In this document: in pieces, positions 5,640 through 63,690 of the stretch | How positions within the stretch are numbered: the stretch's first letter is position 1 | How the letters are laid out: each line of letters starts with the position of its first letter | Assembly: GCF_018127965.1 (NCBI RefSeq) | Contig: NZ_CP072349.1 | Coordinates: 1-64,000, forward strand | DNA from: Prevotella melaninogenica | Lineage (GTDB): Bacteria; Bacteroidota; Bacteroidia; Bacteroidales; Bacteroidaceae | Reading direction: 5' to 3' | DNA length: 64,000 nucleotides | Notes under the pieces: generated by a model | Seen by the model: only the letters and a program-made list of their open reading frames with translations | Databases searched by the model: none | What the model was told of the DNA's origin: nothing | Translations under genes and position numbers: made by a program

Positions 5640-6012
5640 CTTAACGGAAAAGCCGAAGTTATTCATTAAACAAAAACATGGATAAGACCGTCAACAGGAT
5701 ATTCTATTATCATCCCCTCAAAGTAGAAAGTCCTTTCATTTTAAAATTTTAAAAGTCCAAAAAGCTCTTGAAAAATAATGACAATAAATCGAATAAATTG
5801 TCTATAAATAAGGATAAAAACACGTGCAAAAGGTAGGTTTATAACCAACAGAAAATCAGGTAGTTATAAAACAGTATAAGAAAAGGTGCCTGATAGGACT
5901 TCAAAAGGGCGTTAGTAAGGGTCTTAAAGGGCATCTTTTGCAAGTCAATTAGGCGTCTTTTAGAAGCCAAAAAGCATGTATTGGTTTGAATCTTTTGAAA
6001 ATAGTTGACATA
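5640..6012 (+). repeat. Family A intergenic repeat, copy 1
   Basis: This is a 300-370 bp element also found at 18106, 27566, 38776, 48095 and 63419. The most conserved part (about 5885-5985) is a run of five related modules: AAAAGGTGC.., AAAAGGGCGTTAGTAAGG, AAAGGGC(A/G)TCTTTTGCAAG, AGGCGTCTTTTAGAAGCC, and AAAAGCATGTATTGG. The upstream half carries TCTATAAATAAGGATAAAAA and TTATAACCAACAGAAAATCA, also shared with other copies. It ends near GAAAATAGTTGACA. No ORF. This copy lies between the BspA-like gene and the ISL3 element. Confidence 0.8.
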
Positions 6013-6111
6013 CTTCAATTAATAAGGGAACAAGCTGTTTGTAGAAGATGGAAAAACATGCTTATGAATAGACATATAATGGCTTCTCACAACAGAAAAG
6101 TGAAGAAAAGA

Positions 6112-7425
6112 GGTTCATCCGACATTTCGAGTGATACGGCAGTCATGCAGTGCATAAAGTCGTAGAGTAAAGTATTTCTCGTCCCTAAATCCATACGCAT
6201 TTCGTTTCATAACCTTTATCTTGTTATTAATACCTTCAACTTTTCCCGTTGATAGATGGCAATCGTACCAGGCAAGGATCCCTTTCTTATAGGTTTTCAC
6301 GGTAACAGCCATTTTCTGTAATTGTGTTATCTTACTTTGTTCAGCCTGTCTTATCCAGTCATCAAGCACTTTTTCTGCCATAGCCTTCATGGATTGCGAC
6401 CATATCTGATGGAGTTGTTCCTTCAAATAGTATGCTTTTGACAATGGCTCATTCATAGCTAAGGCATTCTCAAGCCTTGTCTTGTGCTGTTTATCAAAGA
6501 TGTCTACACCATTGCCGAGTAGCAGATACCTTGTTCCTTTGAGTACTTTACGCTTATTTATATCTTTCTCCATACTATAAACTTTACGTCTGATATCATC
6601 AAGTTTCTCGTTCATTAACTTCACTACATGGAAATGATCAAATACATGTACTGCATCGGGACAATTCTCCATAACAGAGGCTATGAAAGCCGCAGACAAG
6701 TCTGTTGCCACATGCTTTATCTTTATATTCTTACGTTTGACTTTCCGCCAGAATTTCTTCAGAGCTTCACTACCCTTGCCATCGCCAACATAGATTATCC
6801 TGCCACTGTCCAAATCAACGACGATTGTCTTATAGACATGTCCTTTCCTAACAGCAAACTCATCTATACCAATATTCTCTACACCCTCTAAAGATGGAGG
6901 ACTATAATGACGCTTAAGGTAAGAGGAGTGTATTTCCTTTACAGTATCCCATGATACGCCCAAATGATTCGATACGTCCTGAAGCGTCATGCCACGAAGT
7001 AAATCTACTACATACTTAGCAAAACGGTGAGTATAGCCGCAACTGCCAGTGGCAAAAGGAATTTTCTCCTGCTGATCGAAGTCACATTCCTTACATTTAT
7101 AGCGTTGTACCTTCATGCGTATAGTTACTCGCTTGCCACCTATGGGAAGTCCAACAAAGTCTCGTAAACGATACCCATTCTTTACTATGGAGCGGGCATC
7201 ACAAGAAGGGCAACATCTTATTCGTTCTTTTGCTTGCACATGCAAAATAATTCTATTACCTTTGTACTCTTCACAAGTGCATTCGTGGGTATAAAGACCC
7301 CAAGCATGATATAGGAAACTGCTGTTCATATTTGTACATTTGTTGGTGCATATTCAAATATACAATATTTACAGCGGTTTCTTTTCGTATTTTATGTATT
7401 TATCACTCCAAATTCCGGAAGAACC
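6112..7425 (-). mobile_element. Intact ISL3-family insertion sequence (1,314 bp)
   Basis: Imperfect terminal inverted repeats are visible: GGTTCATCCGACATTT at the left end and, read inward from the right end, GGTTCTTCCGGAATTT. The element is flanked on both sides by the identical 8-mer AGAAAAGA (6104-6111 and 7426-7433). An 8-bp duplication is what ISL3 elements make. It carries one transposase gene whose stop codon lies inside the left repeat. The perfect duplication and open reading frame suggest a fairly recent insertion. Confidence 0.92.
6115..7329 (-). CDS. ISL3-family transposase
   Basis: The DDE transposase has 404 residues. The N-terminus carries a zinc-ribbon with paired cysteines (CTCEEY.., CCPSCDARS, YKCKECDF), typical of ISL3. 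A helix-turn-helix segment (MTLQDVSNHLGVSWDTVKEIH) follows. The catalytic core shows the expected acidic residues in GIDEFAVRKGHVY, VATDLSAAFI and STGKVEGINNKIKVMKRNAYGF. Its length is normal for the family and there is no internal stop, so it is probably active. It is read from the minus strand and occupies nearly all of the 1.3-kb element. Confidence 0.95.
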   Translation of the reverse strand: MNSSFLYHAWGLYTHECTCEEYKGNRIILHVQAKERIRCCPSCDARSIVKNGYRLRDFVGLPIGGKRVTIRMKVQRYKCKECDFDQQEKIPFATGSCGYTHRFAKYVVDLLRGMTLQDVSNHLGVSWDTVKEIHSSYLKRHYSPPSLEGVENIGIDEFAVRKGHVYKTIVVDLDSGRIIYVGDGKGSEALKKFWRKVKRKNIKIKHVATDLSAAFIASVMENCPDAVHVFDHFHVVKLMNEKLDDIRRKVYSMEKDINKRKVLKGTRYLLLGNGVDIFDKQHKTRLENALAMNEPLSKAYYLKEQLHQIWSQSMKAMAEKVLDDWIRQAEQSKITQLQKMAVTVKTYKKGILAWYDCHLSTGKVEGINNKIKVMKRNAYGFRDEKYFTLRLYALHDCRITRNVG

Positions 7426-7435
7426 AGAAAAGAAA

Positions 7436-7476
7436 CGTGCGACAAACCAACAAACAAGATGCTGGAATGTCGCACG
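7436..7476. repeat. Inverted repeat CGTGCGAC / GTCGCACG
   Basis: Two perfectly complementary 8-mers are separated by 25 nt, between the IS right end and the DUF6377 gene. It could form the 3' hairpin of the regulator transcript. There is no T-tract, and the IS inserted just downstream of it. Confidence 0.4.
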
Positions 7477-7524
7477 ATGACAGTTCTTCGATTTATAAAT
7501 TAGGGAAGAGGAAATGGTCTCAAC

Positions 7525-9105
7525 TTATAGTTTTTGTACCATTTCATCGAATTTATCAGGATCAATAGACTTCAGACGCACACGAGAACGGTAAGCATAG
7601 ACCGTTGCTTTTGAGCAGCGAAGGAAAGAACATATAAGCTCATTCTCACTTACGCCAAGGCGAATGAGTGCAAAGATGCGAAGATCAGTAGAGAGATGTC
7701 CTGCTTGTTTAGGAATAATCCTTTCCTCTGGTTTGAGCAATGCGTTGAAATCTTCCACAAAGTTAGGGAAAAGACCGAGGAAGGTCTCATCAAAACTTGA
7801 ATAGAAGGAATCTAACTCACGGTCGATTATCTCCTGTGACTTCAATGTGTTCAGCAGTTCTGTGCGCTTATTGGCTGTAACAAGACGATAAATCTGTTTA
7901 CGATAGCTGTCGAGTTTGTCGATGTAAGCAGAACACTCGCTAAGGAAGCGAGTGATATACTCATCCTTAATATTATTTGATTCTTTCAGCAATTCATTTG
8001 TGTTAGAAAGACGCGCACGAATAGCACGCAATTCTACAACACGACGACGCGTATAGATAATCATAACCAACAAGAAGACAGACATGAGGCTTATCAGCAC
8101 AAGAGCGGCTGTAAGTTTGAGTGTACGACTCTTTGTTTCACGCTCATGTGACTTTTCTATTGCCGGCCAAACGTCAGCCATAGCAATTGTACGCTGACGT
8201 GCATTACAAAACACAGCGTCGTTCATAGCGTGGTCCATATAGGCATAAGCACGTTTTGTATCACCTTCTTCAAAAAGGATCACAGCCAATTGCTGTAGAG
8301 CAAGATATTCCTTTACCGAGTTGCGTATATCAGAGATAGCAGCTGCAATAAGGTATTGCTTTTGAGCTTCCACATTCTTATCCCTACCATAAATATCAGC
8401 AAGCGAGATTGACACAAATGCAGTTTGGCGGTCACCAGGTTTCAAGTGGTGATAGGAATCAAGGAGAATTTTCTTTGCTTGCTCATACTGTTGGCGATTA
8501 ACAAGCTGTTCAGCACGTGACCAAATGTCAGGAGATTGGTTATTGTCTACGACAGAATCGTTACACAGTTTCTCCATCTGCTTGTACATCTTCCTCTGCG
8601 AAGGGATTAAAGCGGCATCAGCAAGTGTACGATAGAGGGTCTTTCGCGTTGAGAAATAATAGAAAGACAAGTCTTGGTTTATCCCACTTCGAGGAATGGA
8701 ATTAATAATATCGCTTGCATCCTTGAGTTCTCCACCCCTTATCAAGAGGTAGGCAAGATTAAGTTTTGCATCATTTACCTTACTCTGATTGCCCATTGCC
8801 TTTGCTATTTTCTGCTTTTCCATAGCATAGACTATAGCAGAGTCTACAGAATAAGATGTATAAAGATTGAAGAGCTTGTTGGATAAATCGTAACGAGCCT
8901 CCATACTCTTTGCGGCATGAAGTTGTTTCTTTACATTGCGTATAACATCTTCATATTGTTTGTCATACTTGGATGACATGGCTATCTCATGGTCGAGATC
9001 GTCAAGTGTTGGTATTTGGGTCTGTGCATTAATGAGTAATGGCGTACATAATATTACACAGATGATTGCAATTTTCTTCATTTGCTTCATTCTTATTTGG
9101 GACAT
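7525..9105 (-). CDS. DUF6377 membrane-anchored transcriptional regulator
   Basis: The protein has 526 residues. Signal peptide or N-terminal anchor (MKKIAIICVILCTPLLINAQ; starts at codons 6 or 9 are also possible). A periplasmic helical, TPR-like region spans about 35-330. One transmembrane segment (LTAALVLISLMSVFLLVMIIYT, about 336-357) leads into a cytoplasmic coiled coil. The C-terminal DUF6377 region ends in a LuxR-like helix-turn-helix (LRIFALIRLGVSENELICSFLRCSKATVYAYRSRVRLK). Topology suggests a periplasmic sensor tied directly to a DNA-binding domain. It lies downstream of the GH97 gene on the same strand. A paralogue lies divergently at 11712. Control of GH97 or other glycan genes is an inference. 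A 12-bp palindrome TGTAACGTTACA lies just upstream at 9120-9131. Confidence 0.8.
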   Translation of the reverse strand: MSQIRMKQMKKIAIICVILCTPLLINAQTQIPTLDDLDHEIAMSSKYDKQYEDVIRNVKKQLHAAKSMEARYDLSNKLFNLYTSYSVDSAIVYAMEKQKIAKAMGNQSKVNDAKLNLAYLLIRGGELKDASDIINSIPRSGINQDLSFYYFSTRKTLYRTLADAALIPSQRKMYKQMEKLCNDSVVDNNQSPDIWSRAEQLVNRQQYEQAKKILLDSYHHLKPGDRQTAFVSISLADIYGRDKNVEAQKQYLIAAAISDIRNSVKEYLALQQLAVILFEEGDTKRAYAYMDHAMNDAVFCNARQRTIAMADVWPAIEKSHERETKSRTLKLTAALVLISLMSVFLLVMIIYTRRRVVELRAIRARLSNTNELLKESNNIKDEYITRFLSECSAYIDKLDSYRKQIYRLVTANKRTELLNTLKSQEIIDRELDSFYSSFDETFLGLFPNFVEDFNALLKPEERIIPKQAGHLSTDLRIFALIRLGVSENELICSFLRCSKATVYAYRSRVRLKSIDPDKFDEMVQKL

Positions 9106-9182
9106 GATATCATCTCTTATGTAACGTTACAATTAATGGTTTCAGTATGTAGTAATGTAAGTAAGTTAGACGCTTCGTGTAA

Positions 9183-9277
9183 GAGATAGAATGTCTGCAG
9201 AGAAACGTAGCCACCTTTCAAAGGATATAACCCTTTGAATTTCTGAGCAATCACGCTTCTCTGCGGCACTTCTATCT
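9183..9277 (-). ncRNA. Nested three-stem hairpin between GH97 and the DUF6377 gene
   Basis: Three concentric complementary pairs are visible: AGATAGAA with TTCTATCT (outer, 8 bp), GCAGAGAAaCG with CGcTTCTCTGC (middle, 10 of 11; 9197-9207 and 9254-9264), and TTCAAAGG with CCTTTGAA (inner, 8 bp; 9217-9224 and 9232-9239). It lies in the 215-nt gap, so it would be in the 5' leader of the regulator or the 3' end of the GH97 transcript. There is no T-run on either side, so it is not a simple intrinsic terminator. Function unknown. Confidence 0.45.
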
Positions 9278-9320
9278 TATACTATATTGATATCGGTTAA
9301 TACCGATAAAACTTAATGGC

Positions 9321-11483
<2,163 letters not shown>

Positions 11484-11530
11484 TTATAATTTCTATTTAA
11501 AGATTGTAAGAGTAATTATTTGATTTTATG

Positions 11531-11538
11531 CAAAGATA
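11531..11538 (-). promoter_or_regulatory. -7 box TATCTTTG for the GH97 gene
   Basis: This is a minus-strand match to TAnnTTTG, about 72 nt before the GH97 start. It is followed by GCATAAAAT, which resembles the downstream sequence of several other promoters in this window. Confidence 0.5.
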
Positions 11539-11683
11539 ATAAAAAGAGTTGAAGTAACCGTCAATAGTAGTACTCAAGTAGATGAACTTATGTTGTTATT
11601 AATCACAAATAACTTATTATCAATATTTTAAATAATAATAATAATTTCTTGAAGTAGACATTCTCTATTTCCAAGTAAAGTAT

Positions 11684-11691
11684 TATCTTTG
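11684..11691 (+). promoter_or_regulatory. -7 box TATCTTTG for the divergent DUF6377 paralogue
   Basis: Plus-strand TATCTTTG ends 20 nt before the ATG at 11712. It faces away from the GH97 promoter about 150 bp to the left, making a divergent regulatory region. Confidence 0.5.
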
Positions 11692-11711
11692 TACCCAATA
11701 GTAATTAAACG

Positions 11712-13396
11712 ATGAAAAGAAGCTTATTATATATACTCTTCTTGTTACTGCCAACAACATTATCTGCTGGTAGTAAGACACAACAGCTACGACAAAAGTT
11801 AGACAATTTGTTGGAGCAACGCAAGGCACTTATTGACAATAAGAACAAAGATATCAACCGACTAAAGAAGAATCTCACAACCAGTGAGAATACGCTTAAA
11901 CGTCTACAGACCTACGAACAGCTATTTGAAGAATACTATGTCTTTCAGTTTGACTCTGCAATGACATACCTAAACAAAGGTATCAAACTTGCAAAAGAGA
12001 CGCAGAACACCTACTATTACAATAGTAATACCATAAGTAAGGCAGAGCTATTATCCATTGGGGGCTTATATAGTGAGGCTATTCATGAAATAGAACAAGT
12101 TGACACAACGGGGCTTGACAAGGCACAACACTTTGAATATTACTTCTCTCTCTTCCGTATTCACACCTATTGGGCAGACTTCTGTAACGATAAAACCTAC
12201 ACGCCAACACACCGATTAAAGGCGCAAGAGTATCTTAAGAAGGCTATGCCTTTTTGCGATGAAACCGGTAAAACTTACGAGTATTACCTCGGTGAATACG
12301 CTGTTTTTGTATTGAATAATCCCCAAGCAGCACGTGCTCATTACGTCAAAGCCATAAAGCAGTTACCCCAAAACTCCCGCTTCTATGCCATGTCGTGCTT
12401 TGCCCTCTCTGGTAGTTATGGCAACGAGGGAAATACTGAAAACAAGAAGAGTTCCTTTTATTGTCGAGTATTGCAGATATAGAGAACTGCACGATGGAGA
12501 ACTTTGCCCTCCAAAATCTTGCGATGTACATCTTTGAACACAACAAAGATGAGCTTGACCTTGCACAACAATATATTCAGACAGCACTCGAGGATGCTCA
12601 TTTCTATAATAATAGGCTCCGTATTATTGAGATTTCAAGCAAGCTACCAGTGATTGTCAGTAGCTATCAGCAGACACTTAACCAGCGCAACAAGGTGCAG
12701 ATGACAGCCATCATTGCTATCTCGCTACTCCTACTCTTTCTGCTTTCCGCAGTCTTTTATATCGTTAAACAAACCAAACGCCTTAGTCTTCAGCAACAGG
12801 AATTGCAAAAGAATAACAACCAACTCTCTGAACTGAACAGACAACAAAAAGAGTTGAATACACAGCTACACGACCTCAATGCGTTACTTGTTGATACCAA
12901 CCGCAAACGCGAGAGATTAGCAAAATTGTATATTGACCTTTGTGCAAAGTATATTGCCCGACTCAAGAAACAACAGACATTGGTTAAAAGAAAGATTAAA
13001 GCCAATCAAACCACAGAATTGCTTAGTCAGCTTTCATCAGAACGCTTATCAGAAGAAGACGCAGTCACTTTCCTCTCTCGCTTTGACAAGGCCTTCCTCG
13101 ATCTCTATCCAGACTTTACTGAGGAGTTAAACAGCCTACTCTTACCAGAAGGTCAGATTCAGAACAAAAGCACCGATGAACTCACTACAGAACAGCGCAT
13201 TATGGCACTCATCCGATTAGGCGTAAAGGAAAGTGCCGAGATAGCCGACCTGTTGTTCTACTCTCCACAGACCATCTATAACTATCGTTCTGTCTTAAAG
13301 GGGAAAGCCATTAACAAAGACACTTTCGAGGAAGAAGTGATGAAACTCTGTCGAATAATTGGTAAATCAACCTCCACACAATCTAAACCCGAATAG
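11712..13396 (+). pseudogene. DUF6377 regulator paralogue, frameshifted
   Basis: Two overlapping frames (11712-12482 and 12461-13396) join into one homologue of the 7525-9105 regulator. The first holds a signal peptide (MKRSLLYILFLLLPTTLSA) and helical periplasmic repeats. The second holds a transmembrane segment (TAIIAISLLLLFLLSAVFYIV), a long coiled coil and a C-terminal helix-turn-helix (QRIMALIRLGVKESAEIADLLFYSPQTIYNYRSVLKGK). Restoring one base in the GAAAAC run near 12438-12442 gives NTEKQEEFLLLSSIADIEN, which lines up with NVEAQKQYLIAAAISDIRN of the paralogue. This points to a single-base deletion, a sequencing error or a slippage switch. The last codons and the stop lie in the terminal repeat of a MITE-like element. 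Confidence 0.8.
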
Positions 13397-13582
13397 GTTA
13401 TTAGACCACAATATGTATTGTTTTTATAACTATGACATTGTTCCCTAACATCTTTTATTTTCTTATCGCCATCTTGTCTGCCTTTTTAACTTGACGTAGC
13501 CCACTACGTCTGCACCCAAAAGACAGCCAATCTGCTAATGATAAAACAAAATATGTTTAGACTCTAATAACCGACTTGGGTT
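13386..13582 (-). mobile_element. MITE-like family B element, copy 1 (197 bp)
   Basis: It is bounded by AACCCGAATAGGTTATTAGA and, reverse-complemented, AACCCAAGTCGGTTATTAGA (17 of 20 identical). Its interior matches the 41003-41204 element in reverse orientation, including CTAACATCTTTTATTTTCTT, AACTTGACGTAGCCC and AAACAAAATATGTTTAG. There is no coding capacity. The left repeat contains the stop codon of the preceding regulator. Confidence 0.75.
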
Positions 13583-13698
13583 TTAAAAAAGCGTTAACAA
13601 AAGCCTTTATTATGTCAAAAACATTAACTTATCAAGTTAAAAACACCAAACATTCAATATCATAAAATAAAATTATCTCTTAATAAAAATAAGAGTAT

Positions 13699-13706
13699 TA
13701 TTTTTG
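13699..13706 (+). promoter_or_regulatory. -7 box TATTTTTG for the DUF3332 gene
   Basis: TATTTTTG matches TAnnTTTG, 66 nt before the ATG at 13773. Confidence 0.4.
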
Positions 13707-13772
13707 TAGACATAAATTAAACTGCTTAGTAATAATAGATTAATATTCACCAAATAAACTAATTTGAAAGTT

Positions 13773-14327
13773 ATGAAAACAAAAGGAATCAAGTCTATGG
13801 TTGCCCTCTTGCTTGGCACAACACTCATGAGTTCATGTGTAGGTTCATTTGCTTTGTTCAACAAACTTGCAAAGTGGAACAAGCACGCTACAAAATCTAA
13901 GTTCCTCAATGAGATTATCTTCCTCGTAATTTCTCCTGCCTACGCATTCTGTAGTGCTGCAGATGCACTCGTACTCAACAGTATTGAGTTCTGGACAGGT
14001 AATAACCCTGTAGCTAACCGCGTTGGTAAGACTCGCAACATCAAGGGTGACGATGGTTTGATTTATGCTGTAAAGTATCTCGAGAATGGTTACCAGATTA
14101 CAAAGCCAGATGGTAGCGTATTCTACTTCACTTACAACAAGCAGGAAAACACATGGTACATGAATGCTGAGGGTAAGGAACAGAAGATTATTCACTTCAA
14201 TGGTGATGGTTCTGTAAAGGCTTTCCTCAACAATGGTTTGACAGCAGACGTTACACTTGATGCAACTGGTGTATATGAGGTTCGCCAGATGCAGGCTGGT
14301 ACAAGCTTCTTCATGGCAAGAAGATAA
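13773..14327 (+). CDS. DUF3332 family lipoprotein
   Basis: Starting at the ATG at 13773 the protein has 184 residues; a TTG three codons earlier is less likely. A lipoprotein signal peptide ends LLGTTLMSSC. A conserved hydrophobic segment (FLNEIIFLVISPAYAFCSAADALVLNSIEFWTGNNPV) is typical of DUF3332. The C-terminal half is beta-rich (GLIYAVKYLENGYQITKPDGSVFYFTYNKQENTWYM). Function unknown; it should be membrane-anchored in the envelope. It is monocistronic, with its own promoter and terminator. Confidence 0.8.
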   Translation: MKTKGIKSMVALLLGTTLMSSCVGSFALFNKLAKWNKHATKSKFLNEIIFLVISPAYAFCSAADALVLNSIEFWTGNNPVANRVGKTRNIKGDDGLIYAVKYLENGYQITKPDGSVFYFTYNKQENTWYMNAEGKEQKIIHFNGDGSVKAFLNNGLTADVTLDATGVYEVRQMQAGTSFFMARR

Positions 14328-14354
14328 GATTCATTCTTGCTACATTACAATATC

Positions 14355-14384
14355 AAATAGGGGCACAGACGTGTCCCTATTTTT
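14355..14384 (+). terminator. Intrinsic terminator of the DUF3332 gene
   Basis: The AAATAGGGGCA / TGTCCCTATTT stem is followed by TTTGTTTCT, 27 nt after the stop codon. Confidence 0.8.
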
Positions 14385-14523
14385 GTTTCTATAAGGAGTA
14401 TCAGAAGTCATATCAGGCGTTTTGTAAAGCCTTGATAACATCGCTCGCTGTCCAATCATTAGCGTTTACTCTGGAAATATACAATGAGAAGGTATCGATA
14501 TTCTCATCATCACCATTCGTGTT

Positions 14524-14601
14524 AACGCTCCGCACCAATGGTGCGGAGGCTTAGCACACATCGTGCGGAGCATTAACACCAATGGTGTGAAAGCCTAAAC
14601 A
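14524..14601. repeat. Family C short hairpin array, locus 1
   Basis: Three consecutive units of about 23 nt, each a small inverted repeat (GCACCAATGGTGC, GCACACATCGTGC, ACACCAATGGTGT) joined by GGAGGCTTA / GGAGCATTA linkers. Related arrays are at 21241 and 56359. It is intergenic and REP-like. Confidence 0.65.
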
Positions 14602-14709
14602 CGTTCTTATCATTTCTCATAATAAACGCTACATACCATTAGAAAAGAGCCATACAACCGAAGAGAAGTATTCATTACATGATAAAGACGAATCAGCCCT
14701 ACCCTACAG

Positions 14710-14752
14710 AAAAAGGGCTTGCACAAGGTATAAACCCTTGGCAAGCCCTTTT
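14710..14752 (-). terminator. Intrinsic terminator of the 14781 lipoprotein gene
   Basis: The stem AAAAAGGGCTTGC / GCAAGCCCTTTT has a T-run on its left side as read on the minus strand. Confidence 0.8.
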
Positions 14753-14780
14753 ATATTAATGTTTTGTTTACAGATTCTTC

Positions 14781-15248
14781 TTACTTCAACTTCAAGTCGT
14801 AGTTCATATCCTTTGTATTAACTGCTGGCTCCTCGAAGTCAGAGTTAACAAGACGAAGTGTAGAGTCGTTTACTACGAGGAAGTTGGTCTTGTTGTCCTT
14901 ACCCAACTCGAACTGGTAGTAAGTATTTTTCTTACCCTTAACGTCCTTCTCTACAACCTGATATTTACCTGTATAGTTGTAAACAGTATCAGCCTCAGAA
15001 GCAGACTTCATGTAAGACTCAGATACGCTGAAACCATTTGATGAATCCTTTGCCAAAGCAACACGATACTTGATACCAGCAACGTCAGCAGCAGGTGTCA
15101 AACCCTCGTAAACAGCAGAGTCGCCAGCAGCAGCTGAATCCTGAACTGCAGAATCTGTACCCTCGTTGTTTGCAGTAGTCTTGCCATTGTTACAAGCTAC
15201 CATAGCTGCGCAAGCAGCTACCAAAAACATAATCTTTTTCATAATCAT
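14781..15248 (-). CDS. Lipoprotein, possibly NlpE-like
   Basis: The protein has 155 residues. A lipoprotein signal (KKIMFLVAACAAMVAC) is followed by an Asn/Ala/Asp/Ser-rich linker (about 20-45) and a beta-rich domain beginning YEGLTPAADVAGIKYRVALAKDSSNGFSVSESY. That layout and the Y-x-G-x-x-P-A-A-D..G motif recall the NlpE N-terminal domain, but the CxxC of classical NlpE is absent. The family call is tentative. The start could be codon 1 (MIMKK) or codon 3. It is monocistronic, with a promoter at 15290-15297. Confidence 0.6.
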   Translation of the reverse strand: MIMKKIMFLVAACAAMVACNNGKTTANNEGTDSAVQDSAAAGDSAVYEGLTPAADVAGIKYRVALAKDSSNGFSVSESYMKSASEADTVYNYTGKYQVVEKDVKGKKNTYYQFELGKDNKTNFLVVNDSTLRLVNSDFEEPAVNTKDMNYDLKLK

Positions 15249-15289
15249 TTTAGTTTTATATTGTAAACTCTATTTTAACTCTCACGGTG

Positions 15290-15297
15290 CAAAGATA
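15290..15297 (-). promoter_or_regulatory. -7 box TATCTTTG for the 14781 lipoprotein
   Basis: A minus-strand TAnnTTTG match 42 nt before the start codon. Confidence 0.5.
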
Positions 15298-15536: not shown

Positions 15537-15560
15537 AGATTATAGTATTATAACAAACGA

Positions 15561-17946: not shown

Positions 17947-18105
17947 CCTATTATATATGTAACACCCAAATAAAAACGAATTTATTTTAGGTCTGCTAAT
18001 TATCAGATGTTAAATCGCTTAACTTGCTTTTCTTTTCCTTATAACCCACTTTTATCATTTTTTGAAGATCCTTTTCCGTTAAATGTGTAGATTGTACTTC
18101 GTATA

Positions 18106-18484
18106 ATCTTAACGAAAGAACTGAAATTACTCATTAAACAAACAACATAGCTAAGACGCTCAACTATCTATTCTATGATTATCTTCTACCATAGAAAACT
18201 CCTTCAGTTTAATGCTTCAACATCACAGACAACGCGCAGAAAAATCATTACAAAACCTTAAGTAAATCAGCTATAAATAACGATAAAAACATGAACAAAA
18301 GACAAGTTTATAACCAACAGAAAATCAATTGGTTATAAAACAGCAAAGTAAAAGGTGCTTAATTGGACTTCAAAAGGGCGTTAGTAAGGGTCTTAAAGGG
18401 CGTCTTTTGCAAGTCAATTAGGCGTCTTTAAGAAGCCAAAAAAGCATGTATTGGTTTTGAGTCGCATGAAAATAATTTACATGC
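18106..18484 (+). repeat. Family A intergenic repeat, copy 2
   Basis: Same orientation as copy 1 and similar over about 370 bp. Its upstream part (CTTAACGAAAGAACTGAAAT.., TCATTAAACAAA) also aligns with copy 1 from 5640. The module core GGTGCTTAATTGGACTTC, AAAAGGGCGTTAGTAAGGGT, AAAGGGCGTCTTTTGCAAGT, AGGCGTCTTTAAGAAGCC is the clearest consensus copy. It lies between the divergent pnp and helicase genes. Confidence 0.8.
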
Positions 18485-18680
18485 AGCTATAAAGTGAGAA
18501 TAAGATATTTGAAGATTACGGATAGCGATGATATCGAATTGCATATTATCTTGCTACTTTTCCATTTGTAAAACCATCTAATTTGAGCATATACACACCA
18601 CGCCAATGCGTAAACTTTGACTCTATTTCCAATCCATGTATTTAACAGAAGCCCACTCTTTACATATAGAATAAAAGAAG

Positions 18681-27032: not shown

Positions 27033-27467
27033 ATGGGTATATTCGATTTCTTTAACAAGAATAAGCGTAAGGCGCAGCAAAATGAACAATGTCTCTTAGA
27101 TGAAGAAGGGACAGGGGAGGCTGACCTATGGTCGAAGGCTTATGTGGCAGAGCCACAATGTTATGAAAAAGAGGGAAAAGAAAAGCTTTTGAATTTTGTT
27201 ATAACAGAGGGAGTGAATACCATTCTACCAATGTATCCCAATGAGTTATATAAAAGCGAAGAAGAAAACTTCTCTGACATTCGTCTTACATTTGTAAGTA
27301 CGACAAAGAAAGGAGAGGTCGTTGACTTACCTTTCTTTCATTGTGTACCCGCTTTATCCAACTACGCTGTGGAGTATAGAGAGCCTAACGTCTTGATTAG
27401 AGGACTGAATGCTGCGGAAATGGGCTTACTTATCTCTGGCGTAAAACAGTCGTTAAAGCGTGTCTAA
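27033..27467 (+). CDS. Small cytoplasmic protein, unknown function
   Basis: The protein has 144 residues and starts MGIFDFFNKNKRKAQQNEQ, with no signal peptide or membrane segment. A mixed alpha/beta body (EKLLNFVITEGVNTILPMYPNELYKSEEENFSDIRLTFVSTTKKGEVVDLPFFHCVPALSNYAVEYREPNVLIRGLNAAEMGLLISGVKQSL) shows no catalytic motif that I recognise. The short start followed by a lysine-rich stretch is common in small Bacteroidota proteins. It has its own promoter and terminator, so it is a real single-gene unit. Confidence 0.7.
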   Translation: MGIFDFFNKNKRKAQQNEQCLLDEEGTGEADLWSKAYVAEPQCYEKEGKEKLLNFVITEGVNTILPMYPNELYKSEEENFSDIRLTFVSTTKKGEVVDLPFFHCVPALSNYAVEYREPNVLIRGLNAAEMGLLISGVKQSLKRV

Positions 27468-27506
27468 ACACATAAGAAGGACTTAACAATACCTATCAAT
27501 ATAAAC

Positions 27507-27543
27507 TCCGATTATGGTTGCAAGAGTATCTGCCCATAATCGG
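27507..27543 (+). terminator. Terminator of the 27033 gene
   Basis: TCCGATTATGG / CCATAATCGGA stem followed by TTCTTCTTTTT. Confidence 0.8.
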
Positions 27544-27565
27544 ATTCTTCTTTTTACGCCCTTTA

Positions 27566-27897
27566 TTTGTAAACTATTTTCGTACACTTCAATTCTAATA
27601 CATGCTCTTTTGGCTTCTTAAAGACGCCTAATTGGCTTGCAAAAGACGCCCTTTAGCAACCTTACTAACGCCCTTTTGGATTCCAATTAAGCACCTTTTA
27701 AAATGCTCCTTTATAACAATCTGATTTCCTGTTGGTTACAAGCCCGCTTGTTATTCGTATTTTTGCCGTTATTTATAGATGTTTTACTTGAAATTGTGTA
27801 ATGATTTTTCAAAATCTTATCTGCAGCTTTTGAAGTTATAAAATAAAAACACTTTGTGCGGCATAGTACGCTTACTATTTTTCTATATCATGGTTAG
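27566..27897 (-). repeat. Family A intergenic repeat, copy 3
   Basis: Reverse orientation relative to copies 1 and 2. It starts with TTTGTAAACTATTTTC (the conserved end) and carries all five modules in order, then the CTATAAATAACG-type half. It lies between two convergent genes. Confidence 0.8.
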
Positions 27898-27922
27898 AGC
27901 GTCAAAAAGGAACAAAAACAAA

Positions 27923-27957
27923 AAAGAGGATGTATCTGTTTTGGACACATCCTCTTT
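27923..27957 (-). terminator. Terminator of the glutaminyl cyclase gene
   Basis: AAAGAGGATGT / ACATCCTCTTT stem followed on the minus strand by TTTTGTTTTTGTTCC. Confidence 0.85.
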
Positions 27958-27974
27958 ATATGAGACTTTATATT

Positions 27975-28991
27975 TTACAGCGTATACAATACCTGTATGA
28001 CGGTCTGACCAACTGCTTGCAACGTATTCTTATCGATATGTTCCATAGTGTCATTGACAGTATGCCATGTTGGACCGAAAGAACTTTGCTGACAATCAGG
28101 ATAGTAAGGAATGATATCAATAGTAGGAATACCTGCAAACTGGTTCACTGGAACATGATCGTCGGTAACCATGCCACCAACAGCATCAGGGAAGTAAGAG
28201 CCGAAACCAGCTCCCTTTGCAGCCTCCCACACACGGTTTACAACATCAGAAGCAAACTGAATAGACATTCCCTCACGATAGAACTGAGCGCCTTCGCCTC
28301 CTACCATATCGAGAAGAATACCGAACTCAGGCTTAACAGCCGTTGGGAAGTTCTTTGCGTAGTATTGTGCACCTAATGCCCAAGAGTCGCCATCGTCTTG
28401 ATAACGAGTCTCCCAACGTGGTATTCCCCAGTCTTCAGCATCAAAACATACGAAGTCAACACCTACTTTTAACTTCTTATCAGCCTGCAACTGACGTGCT
28501 AACTCAAGCATTACAGCCACTCCACTGGCACCATCATTCGCAGCCATAACAGGCTTCTTGTGGTTAGTAGAGTCTGGATCATTGTCTGCCCAAGGACGAC
28601 TATCCCAGTGCGCACAGATTAAGATACGCTTCTTTGCTTCTGGATTAAAACGTGCAATGATATTAGTTGACTTCAAGACCGTACCGTCATAGGCTTTTAG
28701 ATCGGCTTTCTGCTCCTGCACTTCACAGCCATACTCCTTGAATTTCTCTACTATCCACTTGCCACACTTATCATGTGCTGCAGAGTTCATCACACGTGGT
28801 CCGAAGTCACACTGTGCTGCTGTAAAGGCGTATGCAGAGTCGGCATTAAACGTAGGACCGACTGGTTTTGCGGTAGCCACAGTGTCAGTAGCATTATCAG
28901 TGTTGCTTGCTTTCCCCTTACAGCCATAGGCTACGGTTGTGAGGGACACTGCCAAGAGGCAGCCGAAAATGAGTTTTATATTCGTTTTCAT
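27975..28991 (-). CDS. Type II glutaminyl-peptide cyclotransferase (M28-like zinc enzyme), lipoprotein
   Basis: The protein has 338 residues. The N-terminal hydrophobic signal ends in TTVAYGCKGK, a probable lipobox Cys. The M28 fold shows zinc ligands in AANDGASG (Asp), CFDAEDWG (Glu) and FGPTWHTVNDTMEHI (His), with the active-site segment ICAHWDSRPWAD. The CFDAEDWG motif and length match bacterial type II glutaminyl cyclases, as in Porphyromonas and Prevotella intermedia, which turn N-terminal Gln of exported proteins into pyroglutamate. A plain aminopeptidase is the alternative. It is last in a minus-strand run after the Lrp regulator and the C26-M19 fusion. Confidence 0.88.
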   Translation of the reverse strand: MKTNIKLIFGCLLAVSLTTVAYGCKGKASNTDNATDTVATAKPVGPTFNADSAYAFTAAQCDFGPRVMNSAAHDKCGKWIVEKFKEYGCEVQEQKADLKAYDGTVLKSTNIIARFNPEAKKRILICAHWDSRPWADNDPDSTNHKKPVMAANDGASGVAVMLELARQLQADKKLKVGVDFVCFDAEDWGIPRWETRYQDDGDSWALGAQYYAKNFPTAVKPEFGILLDMVGGEGAQFYREGMSIQFASDVVNRVWEAAKGAGFGSYFPDAVGGMVTDDHVPVNQFAGIPTIDIIPYYPDCQQSSFGPTWHTVNDTMEHIDKNTLQAVGQTVIQVLYTL

Positions 28992-37664: not shown

Positions 37665-38699
37665 ATGCCAGAAGATTTTGACATACATGAAGAAAGGCTG
37701 AACTCGGTTGAGAAGGATTTCGAAAACGCTCTACGCCCTCTGAAATTTAATGATTTCAGCGGACAGTCGAAGGTGGTCGAAAACCTCAGCGTCTTTGTTG
37801 AAGCCGCTAAGTTCCGTGGCGAACCGCTCGACCATACCCTCTTACACGGTCCTCCGGGATTGGGTAAGACAACGTTGAGCAATATTATCGCTAACGAATT
37901 GGGCGTTGGTTTCAAGATTACCTCTGGTCCGGTACTCGACAAGCCGGGCGACCTTGCGGGCATCCTCACCTCCTTAGAGCCTAACGACGTCTTGTTTATT
38001 GACGAGATACACCGCCTTTCTCCTGTCGTAGAGGAGTATCTTTACTCTGCGATGGAGGACTATCGTATTGACATTATGATTGATAAGGGACCGTCTGCAC
38101 GTTCTATCCAGATTGACCTCAACCCATTCACACTCGTTGGTGCAACGACACGAAGCGGACTGCTCACAGCTCCTCTCCGTGCACGCTTTGGTATTAATCT
38201 CCATTTGGAGTATTATGATCCAGAGACTTTAAAGCGCATTATCAAGCGTTCGGCTACCCTATTAAAAGTGCCTATCGTGGACGAAGCTGCGGATGAAATT
38301 GCACGTCGCTCACGTGGTACGCCACGTATCTGTAACGCCCTACTCCGCCGTGTACGCGACTTCGCACAGGTGAAGGGTAATGGTACGATCACACCCGAAA
38401 TCGCTACGATGTCACTACAGTCGTTGAACATTGACAAATATGGTTTGGACGAGATAGATAACAAGATTCTACTCACCATTATCGATAAGTTCCGTGGCGG
38501 TCCAGTAGGTGTTTCTACCATTGCCACTGCTATCGGTGAGGATTCTGGTACGGTGGAAGAGGTTTACGAACCTTTCCTTATTATGGAAGGTTTCATCAAA
38601 CGAACCCCTCGTGGACGTGTGGCAACACAGCTTGCCTACGACCATCTCGGACGAAACTCATATCAAGACAATCCTCTACAACCAGGATTATTCGATTAA
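37665..38699 (+). CDS. ruvB: Holliday junction branch migration ATPase RuvB
   Basis: From the ATG at 37665 the protein has 344 residues and starts [34 protein letters not shown]. Walker [13 protein letters not shown], Walker [11 protein letters not shown], sensor [20 protein letters not shown] with the Arg finger, and the C-terminal winged helix ([40 protein letters not shown]) are all present. RuvB drives branch migration with RuvA in recombinational repair. Six upstream codons from a TTG lie over a promoter-like sequence and are not counted. Confidence 0.98.
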
Positions 38700-38707
38700 A
38701 AGACATT

Positions 38708-38741
38708 CCATTGCAAACGTTCACTATGAACAATGCAATGG
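38708..38741 (+). terminator. Terminator-like hairpin after ruvB
   Basis: CCATTGCA..GTTC / GAAC..TGCAATGG stem followed by AGTTTATCTTTTAATT. Confidence 0.7.
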
Positions 38742-38775
38742 AGTTTATCTTTTAATTGTCCCCTTTTGTATCGAT

Positions 38776-39090
38776 ATTTGTAAACTATTTTTAAATAATT
38801 CAAAACCAATACATGCTCTTTTGGCTTCTAAAAGACGCCTAATTGACTTGCAAAAGACGCCCTTTAAGCCCCTTACTAACGCCCTTTTGAAGTCCAATTA
38901 AGCACCTTTTCTTAAACAGTTTTATAACCAACTGATTTCCTGACTGTTACAAACTCGATTTTAAAACGTGTTTTTATCATTATTTGCAGGTGTTTTACTC
39001 GAATTTCTGTAACGATTTTTCAAAATCCATTCTGCGATTTTTTTGAGTATTAAATGAAAAGGTTTTCTGTATTGGAGGATGATAATAAAT
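38776..39090 (-). repeat. Family A intergenic repeat, copy 4
   Basis: Reverse orientation. Begins TTTGTAAACTATTTTTA and carries modules TTTTGGCTTC.AAAAGACGCC, AATTGACTTGCAAAAGACGC, CTTACTAACGCCCTTTTGAA and AATTAAGCACCTTTT. Its far end (GGAGGATGATAATAAATT) still aligns with copy 1 (GAGGGGATGATAATAGAAT in complement). It lies between ruvB and the acyltransferase gene. Confidence 0.8.
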
Positions 39091-48012: not shown

Positions 48013-48094
48013 TGTTCCTATCATGGTAGAATAAAACCTCCGTAATCTCTGACTCCATGTGAAATTTACGTAAAACAGAAAAGAAATATATTGA

Positions 48095-48315
48095 CAAAAT
48101 ATTCAAAGAAAAGGTAGGAAAATGGCTTAAAAGCAAGTTATTTTAGCCCTTTTGCAAGTCATTTATTATCAAACAGTTGCAAAGGTGGATTTTAAAAGGT
48201 GCTTAATAAGGGTTCAAAAGGGCGTTAGTTAGACCTCTAAAGGGCATCTTTTGCAAGCCAAAAGGGCGTTAATTGCAAGCCATTTGGTGGTCTTTTAAAA
48301 TGCAACATGTGAAAA
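48095..48315 (+). repeat. Family A intergenic repeat, copy 5 (divergent)
   Basis: The core reads AAAAGGTGCTTAATAAGGGT, AAAAGGGCGTTAGTTAGACC, AAAGGGCATCTTTTGCAAGC, then an extra module AAAAGGGCGTTAATTGCAAGC and a decayed end. It is the most diverged copy and appears to have gained a module. It lies between convergent genes. Confidence 0.65.
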
Positions 48316-48522
48316 ATTCGGACAAACACAACAAGATTAAGCTCCACAATATAGGGTAACGATAAGGGGAATTATACACGTCTACTTCTTTTTTTCAGCA
48401 TGAAAGAATCGTCAAAACATATCTATCAAAGGAAAAGGGACAATAGAACACAGTGGTTTTAAGTTGTAGAGAACATCTTGTCAGTAGGAGATTAAACTAC
48501 TTCCACAGCCACCATAAAAAGA

Positions 48523-52766: not shown

Positions 52767-52767
52767 C

Positions 52768-56234: not shown

Positions 56235-56358
56235 GCTGATTTACGGCATAATACAAAATAAGTTCACGTATTTTTAAATAAGGTATTGACAAGTCAAGGG
56301 ATGACCTTTACATATAGAGTAATTGGTAAGATTGAACCGTTCTTCTCATTTTCTATCG

Positions 56359-56413
56359 ACGTGTTGACGCTCCGCACATCTGGTGCGGAGGCTTAGCACC
56401 AATGGTGCGAAGT
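56359..56413. repeat. Family C short hairpin array, locus 3
   Basis: CTCCGCACATCTGGTGCGGAG and GCACCAATGGTGC units joined by GCTTA, between the divergent dapB and DUF2851 genes. Confidence 0.6.
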
Positions 56414-56491
56414 ACTAAGAAGTGAGAAACTGTAGTATGAAATAATAAGAAAAATACATAGATAATACTATTAGTTTTATCATTTTCTTTG

Positions 56492-56526: not shown

Positions 56527-57837
56527 ATGGAACAACTCATCCACTACGTATGGAAACACAAGCTGTTTCCGTTGACAGGGCTTAAAACCACTGACGGACA
56601 AGAGGTGGAGGTCATTGACACTGGACTACATAATCACAACGCTGGGCCTGACTTCTTCAATGCAAAGGTGAAGATAGGCGGTACGCTGTGGGTGGGGAAT
56701 GTGGAGATACACGATCGTGCCTCCGATTGGTTTCTACACAGACACGACCGCGACCCGAACTATAACAATGTTATCCTGCACGTGGCTGAGTCTATCGACG
56801 TTGATGTTAAGACACGAAGGGGCGATTATCCGCCACAGATGCGACTGCAAGTGCCGACGGCTGTGCGAGAACATTACGAAGAACTGCTCACAACTGATGA
56901 ATATCCGGCTTGTTATCGTATCATTCCGAGTCTGTCAAAACTAATGGTTCATTCGTGGATGAGTGCCTTACAGACGGAAAGGTTGGAACAGAAAACAGAG
57001 GCGATAGCCCAACGAGTGAAGGACTGTGACGGCTCTTGGGAAGCAGCCTACTTCGTTACACTTGCCCGCAACTATGGTTTCGGCATCAATGGGGATGCTT
57101 TCGAGACATGGGCTAAGCTGATTCCTTTGCAGAGTGTGGCGCATCATCGGGACAATCTCATGCAGATTGAAGCTTTCTTCTTGGGGCAAGCTGGATTGTT
57201 AGATATAGCAGCTATCCCCGAAAGATATCAACAGCAGGCACTGAACGACAGCTATTTCACAGAGCTGAAAAGCGAATATCAGTACTTAGCACATAAGTTT
57301 GGACTACAAGCGATGGATGCCAATCAATGGCGATTCCTCCGCCTACGGCCGCAGAACTTTCCGCATATCCGTATCGCACAGCTCGCTCACCTCTACTATG
57401 AACAGCGGGCTGGATTATCTCAGTTGTTGGAGTGTGAGAGCGTTAAGCAGGTGAGGGAGCTATTGGCAACACAGGTGACACACTACTGGGAGACGCATTA
57501 CGTCTTTGGTGAAGAGAGTGCTAAGAGCGAGAAGAAACTATCAGCAGCATCATTAAATCTGCAGATTATCAATACCGTTGCGCCTATCCTCTTCGCATAC
57601 GGCAAACATAAGAACTCGGAGAAGTACTGTGAACGTGCCTTCGACTTCCTCGAAACCTTGAAAGCAGAGGAGAATCACATCGTTAGAATGTGGAAGGAAG
57701 TGGGGCTAATGGTAGAGACTGCGGGTGATTCGCAAGCCCTTATACAACTAAAGAAGGAGTATTGTGACCGAAAAGATTGCCTCCGCTGTAGGATTGGTTA
57801 TGAGTATCTGAAGGGGAGTTCATCAATAAAGGGTTAG
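56527..57837 (+). CDS. DUF2851 family protein
   Basis: From the ATG at 56527 the protein has 436 residues and starts MEQLIHYVWKHKLFPLTGLKTTDGQEVEVIDTGLHNHNAGPDFFNAKVKIGGTLWVGNVEIHDRASDWFLHRHDRDPNYNNVILHVA, the hallmark of DUF2851. The N-terminal part looks like a nuclease-type fold, with D, E and H positions in NAGPDFFNAKV and GNVEIH; a nuclease role is only an inference. The C-terminal two thirds are helical and end in a Cys pair (KKEYCDRKDCLRCRIGYEYL). Confidence 0.88.
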   Translation: MEQLIHYVWKHKLFPLTGLKTTDGQEVEVIDTGLHNHNAGPDFFNAKVKIGGTLWVGNVEIHDRASDWFLHRHDRDPNYNNVILHVAESIDVDVKTRRGDYPPQMRLQVPTAVREHYEELLTTDEYPACYRIIPSLSKLMVHSWMSALQTERLEQKTEAIAQRVKDCDGSWEAAYFVTLARNYGFGINGDAFETWAKLIPLQSVAHHRDNLMQIEAFFLGQAGLLDIAAIPERYQQQALNDSYFTELKSEYQYLAHKFGLQAMDANQWRFLRLRPQNFPHIRIAQLAHLYYEQRAGLSQLLECESVKQVRELLATQVTHYWETHYVFGEESAKSEKKLSAASLNLQIINTVAPILFAYGKHKNSEKYCERAFDFLETLKAEENHIVRMWKEVGLMVETAGDSQALIQLKKEYCDRKDCLRCRIGYEYLKGSSSIKG

Positions 57838-57848
57838 GAGGATTGGGA

Positions 57849-57901
57849 TGATTAGGCTAATAAGGCTAATAGGCCTAATAAGGCTAATAAGTCCAATAAA
57901 A
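57849..57901. repeat. Family D GGCTAATAA repeat array, locus 4
   Basis: About five 9-mers (TTAGGCTAATAAGGCTAATA, GGCCTAATAAGGCTAATAAG) between the DUF2851 and thioesterase genes, same strand. Confidence 0.65.
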
Positions 57902-62738: not shown

Positions 62739-62784
62739 CGATTAGACAGAGGCGCACAAGCCTCATCGATAAAACATAGACACG

Positions 62785-63213
62785 ATGATAACATATAGTG
62801 CTGAAGGCGTTAAGATGCCTAAAATCAAGAAACGAGAGATTTCTCGTTGGATTAAAGCTGTTGCTGCAACGCATGGTAGGAAGGTTGGAGAAATTGGTTA
62901 TATGTTCGTAGATGATGAGAAGATTCTCGAAGTAAACAACGAGTATCTTGGACATGATTACTACACGGACATCATTACTTTCGACTATGATGAGGAGGAT
63001 GTGCTCAATGGCGACCTTGTTATCTCACTTGATACAGTCCGCTCTAATGCCGAACTTTTCAAGAAGTCATATGAGGACGAGCTTCACCGAGTTATCATTC
63101 ATGGTATCCTTCACCTCTGTGGTATCAATGACAAAGGACCTGGAGAACGTGAGATTATGGAAGAAAACGAGAACAAAGCACTCGCGCTATTAAAGGAGAT
63201 GAGTGACCAATAA
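62785..63213 (+). CDS. ybeY: Endoribonuclease YbeY
   Basis: The protein has 142 residues. It contains INxxYLGHDYYTDIITFDYDEEDVLNGDLVISLDTVRSNAELFKKSYEDELHRVIIHGILHLCGINDKGPGEREIMEENEN. The classical zinc motif HGxLHLxGYDH reads HGILHLCGINDKG, so the third ligand position is Asp/Lys rather than His, a change also known in other Bacteroidota. It processes rRNA and aids ribosome quality control. Confidence 0.94.
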   Translation: MITYSAEGVKMPKIKKREISRWIKAVAATHGRKVGEIGYMFVDDEKILEVNNEYLGHDYYTDIITFDYDEEDVLNGDLVISLDTVRSNAELFKKSYEDELHRVIIHGILHLCGINDKGPGEREIMEENENKALALLKEMSDQ

Positions 63214-63259
63214 TAAGCGTTTCACTCTACTTGAGTAAACACTCACACGTAAAAGACAA

Positions 63260-63292
63260 AAGGGCTGAAATCCTATTTTGGGTTTCAGCCCT
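63260..63292 (+). terminator. Terminator of the coaD-ybeY unit
   Basis: AAGGGCTGAAA / TTTCAGCCCTT stem followed by ATTATTTG. Confidence 0.85.
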
Positions 63293-63418
63293 TATTATTT
63301 GACCTCATTTCTCTGCTGAAGGATTGTTGATAGCCTGCAGAAGGATTATTATTCGGATTAGAATAAAGGTTTATACAATGTTTTAAAAGCGCATCACTTA
63401 TTCCCATTTTACCTGACG

Positions 63419-63690
63419 TTTGTAAACTATTTTCACTTAACTCAAAACCAATACATGCTCTTTTGGCTTCTTAAAGACGCCCTTTAAGCTTGCAAAAGGT
63501 GCCCTTTAAGACTCTTACTAACGCCCTTTTGAAGTCCAATTAAGCACCTTTTACCATACCACTTCATAACTAACTGATTGTCTGCTGATTACAAACGCGC
63601 CTTTTACACGTGTTTTTCCCTTTGTTTATAGCTATTTTATCCGAATATATGTAATGATTTTTCAAACCTTTATCTATAAATTTTCAACTT
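63419..63690 (-). repeat. Family A intergenic repeat, copy 6
   Basis: Reverse orientation, starting TTTGTAAACTATTTTCACTT. All modules are recognisable, but the third is changed to CTTGCAAAAGGTGCCCTTTA. The far half includes TTTATAGCTATTTTATCCGA and GTAATGATTTTTCAAACC, as in copies 3 and 4. It lies between ybeY and a convergent gene. Confidence 0.8.

What the first reader, a model, noticed from the sequence alone, without database searches (positions are those of the whole stretch)
5640..63690. Family A: six-copy modular intergenic repeat of 300-370 bp
Six copies (5640-6012 +, 18106-18484 +, 27566-27897 -, 38776-39090 -, 48095-48315 +, 63419-63690 -) occur in 64 kb, all between genes, in both orientations, and beside genes in convergent, divergent and tandem arrangements. 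The best-conserved 100 bp consists of five related but non-identical modules, each starting AAAAGG or similar (GGTGCTTAATTGGACTTC; GGGCGTTAGTAAGG; GGGCGTCTTTTGCAAG; GGCGTCTTTAAGAAGCC; GAGCATGTATTGG). Copies 5 and 6 swap or add modules, which suggests recombination between modules. A second conserved half (TATAACCAACAGAAAATC) lies at a fixed distance. No ORF and no terminal inverted repeats. It could be a non-autonomous element, a structured RNA or a protein-binding array. I do not recognise it as a named family.
Basis: seen in the sequence. Interest (0 to 1): 0.72.

Follow-up and report, generated by a model that had tools for sequence, protein, structure and literature searches.

The report
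Transposon-borne 22-bp palindrome arrays in Prevotella
The six repeats are worn members of a family in which an older intergenic DNA block, made of five 22-bp palindrome-like modules beside a DNA-bending motif, also rides inside a small non-coding transposon that copied it to many sites in oral Prevotella.

Summary
The six copies are real, but they are worn members of a larger two-layer family. Layer one: a ~590-bp ISL3-type MITE with terminal inverted repeats GGTTCTTCCGTTAAATG and 8-bp target duplications (at least 7 of 8 bases in 23 of 49 two-ended elements; shuffled mean 1.1). An ISL3 element with the same TIRs and duplications is intact in relative G371. Layer two: an older ~250-bp unit inside the MITE that also occurs alone: an IHF-like site, then five 22-bp palindrome-like modules. 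Solo units favour the 3' side of a co-directional gene (21 of 25 strict, 29 of 42 broad); two-armed MITEs do not (15 of 34). The module grammar recurs with other letters in further Prevotella and in two other Bacteroidales families. Against: no single RNA fold is conserved, own-genome arrays are not terminator-like, the 3' bias does not repeat in distant arrays, and the array evolves no slower than the left flank. A RIB/BIME-like protein-docking role is my best guess for the unit; it is inferred, not shown.

The parts
5534..6060 (+). Copy 1: MITE-derived, left part and array unit (unit 5763-6013); an ISL3 element lies just beyond its right side
   Evidence: profile model positions 2-464; unit hit
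18071..18653 (+). Copy 2: near full-length MITE (unit 18234-18482), decayed TIRs
   Evidence: profile positions 4-587 of 589; unit hit; present at the same locus in G169
27410..27978 (-). Copy 3: MITE-derived (unit 27565-27817)
   Evidence: profile positions 46-545; present in G169; only part of the unit matches in G371, next to about 4.3 kb of other DNA
38691..39089 (-). Copy 4: MITE-derived, partial arms (unit 38776-39026)
   Evidence: profile positions 103-477; present in G169 and G371
48082..48327 (+). Copy 5: solo unit, five exact 22-bp modules, no scored MITE arm
   Evidence: unit hit; arm scoring; the coverage rule had put it with the MITEs; present in G169 and G371
63396..63768 (-). 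Copy 6: unit 63418-63668, no scored MITE arm; module exchange against its G169 orthologue
63758..63817 (.). Hairpin built of two inverted copies of module 1 (AAAAGGTGC...GCACCTTTT), beside copy 6
   Evidence: repeat families D5 and D6; alignment with G169
6112..7425 (-). ISL3-family insertion sequence (transposase 6115-7329) with own TIRs and 8-bp duplication AGAAAAGA; same family as the MITE's partner but a different TIR after its first ten bases
   Evidence: Pfam PF01610 E 4e-71; ends read; nine equal-scoring hits in the genome

Best explanation
Two layers. Layer 1 (shown from sequence): the mobile form is a MITE of about 590 bp of the ISL3 family, with TIR GGTTCTTCCGTTAAATG and 8-bp AT-rich target duplications, and without a transposase. 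It was presumably moved in trans by a 1.3-kb ISL3 element with the same TIRs, which is intact in close relative G371 and decayed in G402. Copies 2-6 of the window are old insertions or units shared with sister species. Layer 2 (anatomy shown, function inferred): inside the MITE lies an older intergenic unit of about 250 bp that also exists alone: an AT-rich box TGAAAnATnnTTACAAA, an inverted TTTGTAAC/GTTACAAA pair overlapping an IHF-like WATCAANNNNTTR, five tandem 22-bp modules (several of the form AAAAG-N5-CTTTT), and a second box. I propose that the unit works like E. coli RIB/BIME elements: an IHF/HU-type protein bends the leader, and the phased palindromes dock a second, dimeric protein, in solo units mostly at the 3' side of genes. 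The MITE copies would be passengers that spread such sites in either orientation.
For: MITE: conserved ends in a 53-copy alignment; 23 of 49 two-ended elements with at least 7 of 8 duplicated bases against a shuffled mean of 1.1 and maximum of 4; six G371 elements of 1,305-1,306 bp with these TIRs, five with a perfect 8-bp duplication, four with an unbroken 406-aa frame. Unit: sharp edges in units without arms; IHF-like motif exact in 53 of 95 and within one mismatch in 89 of 95 copies, and beside 6 of 17 distant arrays against 0.29 for scrambled motifs; upstream gene co-directional in 21 of 25 strict (p 0.0009) and 29 of 42 broad (p 0.02) solo units but 15 of 34 two-armed copies; 22-bp lag self-identity 0.60 in distant arrays; array differs at 36 of 550 orthologous sites against 72 of 550 for the left part of the unit and 130 of 1300 for the right flank.
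Against: No protein binding was tested and the IHF consensus is recalled. The 3' bias does not repeat in distant arrays: of 21 with two neighbours, -+ 8, -- 6, ++ 4, +- 3. The left flanks of the same orthologues (copy 3 left out as misaligned) differ at 71 of 1119 sites, about the same as the array, so constraint on the array is not certain, and conversion between copies could also slow it. Single arrays fold better than shuffles, and some distant arrays look like terminators. 26 of 49 two-ended elements lack the duplication.
Confidence: 0.55

Rival explanations
1. Only a transposon: the inner unit is an inert passenger whose likeness between copies reflects recent spread and conversion, with no function.
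For: Orthologous copies exchange module variants (GGGCGTC/GGGCACC; copy 6 modules 3/4). G333 elements with perfect duplications suggest younger copies there. MITE copies have no orientation bias (15 of 34).
Against: Units without arms share the same architecture, and related arrays with other letters keep the 22-bp plan in other species. The solo units have a 3' bias.
Confidence: 0.25
2. The array is a structured RNA: transcribed from the upstream gene, it folds into a long hairpin that protects or processes the mRNA 3' end.
For: Mean -33.8 kcal/mol and z -2.8 on the + strand against -24.7 and -2.2 on the other, 159 of 166 more stable on +; RIBOSUM-scored RNAalifold -45.1 on + and -28.3 on - for 121 clusters, -32.6 on A1; solo units 3' of co-directional genes.
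Against: Standard consensus fold 0.0 on 166 rows and -2.64 on 60 arrays. Individual structures pair different modules in steps of 22, which tandem near-palindromes do in any case; the purine-rich + strand gains G-U pairs by composition. The left part of the unit has no fold (z about -0.1).
Confidence: 0.12
3. The arrays are multi-arm bidirectional transcription terminators that grow by duplication of 22-bp arms.
For: A scan finds terminator-like hairpins in 8 (forward) and 11 (reverse) of 22 distant arrays, shuffled mean 0.75; examples such as AAAAGACGGCCTTTTGG-AAG-CCAAAAGGCCGTCTTT in L289; the hairpin beside copy 6.
Against: Own-family arrays: 2 of 54 solo and 1 of 67 MITE arrays on the gene strand, 0 on the other, shuffled means 0.5 and 0.9. 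Some arrays lie between divergent genes.
Confidence: 0.15

Closest known systems
BrickBuilt MITE of Porphyromonas gingivalis (PMC4596501; abstract, passages and sections 5 and 8 read)
   Same: A MITE with a tandem minisatellite (23 nt there, 22 bp here) between a leader and a tail, always intergenic, imperfect repeats, predicted long stem loops, no Rfam match.
   Different: BrickBuilt TIRs are of IS5 type (GAGACCTTTGCA and alike) with no transposase remnant; here the TIR is of ISL3 type. BrickBuilt has 19 copies in strain ATCC 33277 and up to 22.8 repeats; here about 160 hits and mostly five modules. Its BLASTn found nothing outside P. gingivalis; the 22-bp grammar here recurs across species. 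The two sequences were not compared directly.
ISL3-family insertion sequences and MITEs made from them
   Same: TIR beginning GG, 8-bp AT-rich duplication, partner with a DDE_Tnp_ISL3 transposase.
   Different: The MITE's inside is not seen to be a shortened copy of the IS; only the ends look alike by eye. The inside is the array unit.
RIB/BIME and REP elements of enterobacteria (RIB paper known to me only by its title in reference lists; not held)
   Same: High-copy extragenic palindromes, an IHF-like site, and for solo units a place 3' of genes.
   Different: Module sequence, strict 22-bp tandem phase, host phylum, and carriage by an ISL3 MITE.
Palindromic candidate structured RNAs of human microbiomes (PMC8040213, passages only)
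   Same: Palindromic intergenic motifs in Bacteroidetes, many predicted terminators.
   Different: Not compared: its tables could not be opened, so one of its motifs may overlap these arrays.

Membership tests
ISL3-type MITE | Terminal inverted repeats beginning GG, shared with an ISL3 element | tested here: met
   decayed beyond 3 mismatches in this window
ISL3-type MITE | 8-bp target duplication | tested here: met
   at least 7 of 8 bases in 23 of 49, shuffled mean 1.1, maximum 4
ISL3-type MITE | No transposase gene inside, length 50-1000 bp | tested here: met
   G333 elements 498-620 bp; ORFs of 80 aa or more overlap 4 of 67 MITE and 1 of 25 solo units
ISL3-type MITE | Moved by the ISL3 transposase in trans | not testable with these tools
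   needs a transposition assay
BrickBuilt | IS5-type TIR GAGACCTTTGCA / TGCAAAGGTCTC | tested here: not met
   TIR here GGTTCTTCCGTTAAATG; BrickBuilt TIR from passages
BrickBuilt | Sequence homology of the repeat unit | not tested
   the BrickBuilt sequence was not at hand
RIB/BIME | IHF-binding site in the element | tested here: inconclusive
   motif present; binding not tested
[quoted passage not shown]
   solo units 21 of 25 and 29 of 42; not two-armed MITEs (15 of 34) nor distant arrays
RIB/BIME | REP palindromes with GTAG/CGTC tags and a RAYT | not tested
Rfam RNA family | Match at the gathering score | tested here: not met
   0 in the window; on eight loci only sub-gathering plastid, microRNA and DUF805b models
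Intrinsic terminator | G+C-rich hairpin followed by a T run | tested here: not met
   own-family arrays 2 of 54 and 1 of 67; distant arrays differ, 8 and 11 of 22

The most novel reading that the evidence does not exclude
A class of Bacteroidales chromosomal element not found in my searches: arrays of 22-bp phased palindromes (AAAAG-N5-CTTTT-N7) often behind an IHF-like leader. Species keep the grammar but use their own letters, and the unit has been captured and amplified by different small transposons: an ISL3 MITE in the P. melaninogenica group, and perhaps a differently ended element in G246. It would be read at the DNA level by an unknown dimeric protein that organises the chromosome or bounds transcription units.
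Probability: 0.35. Interest if true: 0.82.

Novelty: new variant of a known kind. Interest (0 to 1): 0.6.

Why it matters
It turns an unexplained Prevotella repeat into three testable objects: a MITE with an identified ISL3 partner, an older array unit with a fixed architecture, and a module grammar kept across species while the letters change. If the arrays bind a protein, this would be a RIB/BIME-like system in Bacteroidales, and a clear case of a transposon multiplying a host block to more than a hundred sites.

Tried and rejected
Phage or plasmid origin: distant blastn of copy 2 found nothing in phage and plasmid records, and an exact 18-mer found nothing in viral contigs. Rfam: nothing at gathering score. 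The window's own ISL3 element as the MITE's partner: its TIR departs after the first ten bases. The other ISL3 type in the genome (L096): different ends. One conserved RNA fold: not supported; results in its favour are kept under the rival. Terminator reading for own-family arrays: not supported. A comparison at the starts of contigs failed because the contigs begin elsewhere and was redone at the right places. Copy 1's place in G169 has no copy but is not a clean empty site, so it was not used. Ends and target duplication of the G246 element were not established; its TIR-like CGTGAAACA...TGTTTCACG was read by eye. In one search three short loci (L281, L286, L294) showed the wrong stretch and were not assessed. 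For one search I used 17 of the 31 loci, leaving out 14 further copies from G246. Alignment A1 holds 60 of 121 clusters.

Literature: nine searches (Prevotella or Bacteroidetes with intergenic repeat, MITE, ISL3, IHF or extragenic palindromic terms) listed no title or abstract opening that describes this family. Only open-licence papers are held. PMC4596501 was read in part; PMC10969869, PMC3733652, PMC12306157, PMC2267715 and PMC8040213 by passages only.
Full report
Observation. A module pattern gives 10 window hits at up to 2 mismatches against a chance mean of 0.11; 8 of the 10 are in the copies. In the window's genome (G000, 3.22 Mb, 2 contigs) module 2 has 162 hits at up to 2 mismatches with 0 in the reversed-pattern control, and module 3 has 207 at up to 3 mismatches, control 0. 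BLAST with copy 2 scored and listed 40 places at 76-100% identity.

The ends. Several elements carry a second, inverted TIR copy 36 bp inside the left end. Among all fetched DNA the script found 49 end pairs 400-760 bp apart; a few share one end (L054, L168, L206) and one is the decayed IS of G402 (L131). Fourteen have an exact 8-bp duplication and 23 a match of at least 7 of 8, against a mean of 1.1 and a maximum of 4 in 200 shuffles; width 9 gives 1. The other 26 show none, so many are old or recombined. In this window no TIR is within 3 mismatches.

The partner. Pfam places the gene beside copy 1 (6115-7329) in the ISL3 family. Its element (6112-7425) has TIRs that agree with the MITE's only over the first ten bases or so, and a duplication AGAAAAGA. 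Nine equal-scoring hits and one of another type exist in the genome. In G402 a 638-bp shortened ISL3 element carries the MITE's TIRs, one exact and one with a mismatch. G402 is P. histicola JCM 15637 if a contig length of 151,776 identifies it, and G148 P. multiformis DSM 16608 by 1,368,087. A search of 398 Prevotella genomes with that transposase fragment found 27 with matches at E 1e-25 or better, the nearest full-length ones, 95% identical, in G371. Six G371 loci have a 1,305-1,306-bp element with TIR GGYTCTTCCGTTAAATG; five show a perfect 8-bp duplication, one (L139) does not; four have an unbroken 406-aa frame and two a TAG.

Distribution. With the module-2 pattern 33 of 398 Prevotella genomes have at least one hit; the counts are large only in G000 (162), G169 (152), G371 (150), G333 (89) and G148 (21), and single hits include chance ones. 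TIR-pattern hits: G000 78; G148 164, G333 165, G371 88, G169 53, G402 4, G003 2, G029 1, and none in G026, G191 and G273. Exact matches in named genomes: P. jejuni (five stretches in four records), P. histicola, P. multiformis, and one planctomycete record that is probably chance. G169's contig length fits P. melaninogenica ATCC 25845 chromosome I (recalled).

The inner unit. Of 100 distinct own-genome profile hits 15 cover the full model and 22 just the middle. The middle-only units of five genomes (32 in the alignment) share sharp edges: a left box GAAAtaT.tTTACAaaa, an inverted TTTGTAAc/aGTTacAAA pair, a conserved ATCA stretch before it, five 22-bp modules, and a right box tgTGAAaaaTt.TtACAAA. 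The ATCA....TT stretch fits the IHF consensus WATCAANNNNTTR (recalled): exact in 53 of 95 copies, at most one mismatch in 89 of 95; scrambled motifs match exactly in 0.1% of tests. Copies share descent, so the more independent test is in distant arrays: 6 of 17 have the motif within 80 bp, two of the six from one genome, against a mean of 0.29 for 300 scrambled motifs and 0.65 for 300 random placements, none reaching 6.

Gene context (ORFs called by script). In the strict solo class, set by profile coverage, the upstream neighbour is co-directional in 21 of 25, p 0.0009, and none of the 25 lies between divergent genes. In a broader class without scored arms it is 29 of 42, p 0.02, with 4 between divergent genes; left arm only 7 of 10, right arm only 4 of 8, both arms 15 of 34. 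In 31 distant arrays 8 overlapped an ORF and 2 lacked a neighbour; the other 21 were -+ 8, -- 6, ++ 4, +- 3, which does not repeat the bias.

RNA or DNA. Single arrays fold well (mean -33.8 kcal/mol, z -2.8 on the + strand; -24.7, z -2.2 on the other; 159 of 166 more stable on +), and RIBOSUM-scored RNAalifold gives -45.1 on 121 clusters and -32.6 on the 60 of A1. The standard consensus fold is 0.0 on 166 rows and -2.64 on A1. Individual structures pair different modules in steps of 22, as tandem near-palindromes must, so this is not evidence for one RNA. A terminator scan finds 2 of 54 solo and 1 of 67 MITE arrays on the gene strand (shuffled 0.5 and 0.9), but 8 and 11 (two strands) of 22 distant arrays, shuffled 0.75.

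Evolution in place. Copies 2-6 are present at the same loci in G169, and copies 4 and 5 were also aligned with G371. For the five G169 pairs the array differs at 36 of 550 sites, the left part of the unit at 72 of 550 and the right flank at 130 of 1300; the left flanks, copy 3 left out as misaligned, at 71 of 1119. The array is slower than its own unit and the right flank but like the left flank, which is partly genic. Copy 6's changed modules show that exchange between copies happens.

Grammar beyond the group. A sequence-only model of the array matched 43 of 149 Prevotella genomes at E 0.001 or better, with at most 22 candidates scored per genome. Distant hits carry other letters on the same plan, RAAAG-N5-CTTTY-N7, period 22, with self-identity 0.60 at lag 22 and 0.54 at lag 44. 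A three-unit grammar pattern hit 5 of 392 genomes of the order: G000 (18 forward hits, control 6), G273 (6, control 0), G562 (7, control 0), G703 (32, control 2) and G640 (1, control 0, AT-rich, probably chance); G047 and G581 had one control hit each and no pattern hit. G562 and G703 are in other families. G246 has 22 of 22 scored matches; the 17 loci that I aligned share a leader on the same TTTGTAAC...ATCAA plan, and most are bounded by ends unlike the ISL3 TIR.

Conclusion. A MITE with a known kind of engine carries and has multiplied an older intergenic block. What the block does is not shown. A RIB/BIME-like DNA role fits the leader motif, the 22-bp phase, the solo units' place and the lack of one RNA fold; the points against it are the distant arrays' context, the left-flank rate and the absence of any binding test. 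Terminator and RNA roles remain possible, the first mainly for the distant arrays.

Noticed in passing
window 13385-13583 and 41003-41204: A second MITE-like repeat of about 200 bp with 21-22-bp terminal inverted repeats (perfect TTAACCCAAATCGGTCATTAGA in the second copy).
   Followed up: partly
window 14487-14576, 21225-21314, 56329-56418: A G+C-rich repeat with GCTCCGCACCAATGGTGCGGAGC-like palindromes (family D4).
   Followed up: no
window 36262-36413, 40224-40296, 57836-57890: Arrays phased at about 9 bp of TAATAAGGC/GGCTAAT units; similar sequence also replaces the right arm in some repeat copies.
   Followed up: no
window 32744-32835 and 52767-52835: A palindromic A+T-rich repeat around TTCATGAAAATAATTC.
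   Followed up: no
window 7430-18012: This stretch is inverted in G371, and both breakpoints abut copies of the repeat family.
   Followed up: partly
G703 loci L328, L333: A second tandem array with different letters (AAAACGATAGGTTTTT units) lies within about 200 bp of the first.
   Followed up: no
G562 loci L329, L334, L339, L344: The arrays are framed by further AAGTCGTCAGG / CTCCCGACTTTT-like repeats.
   Followed up: no
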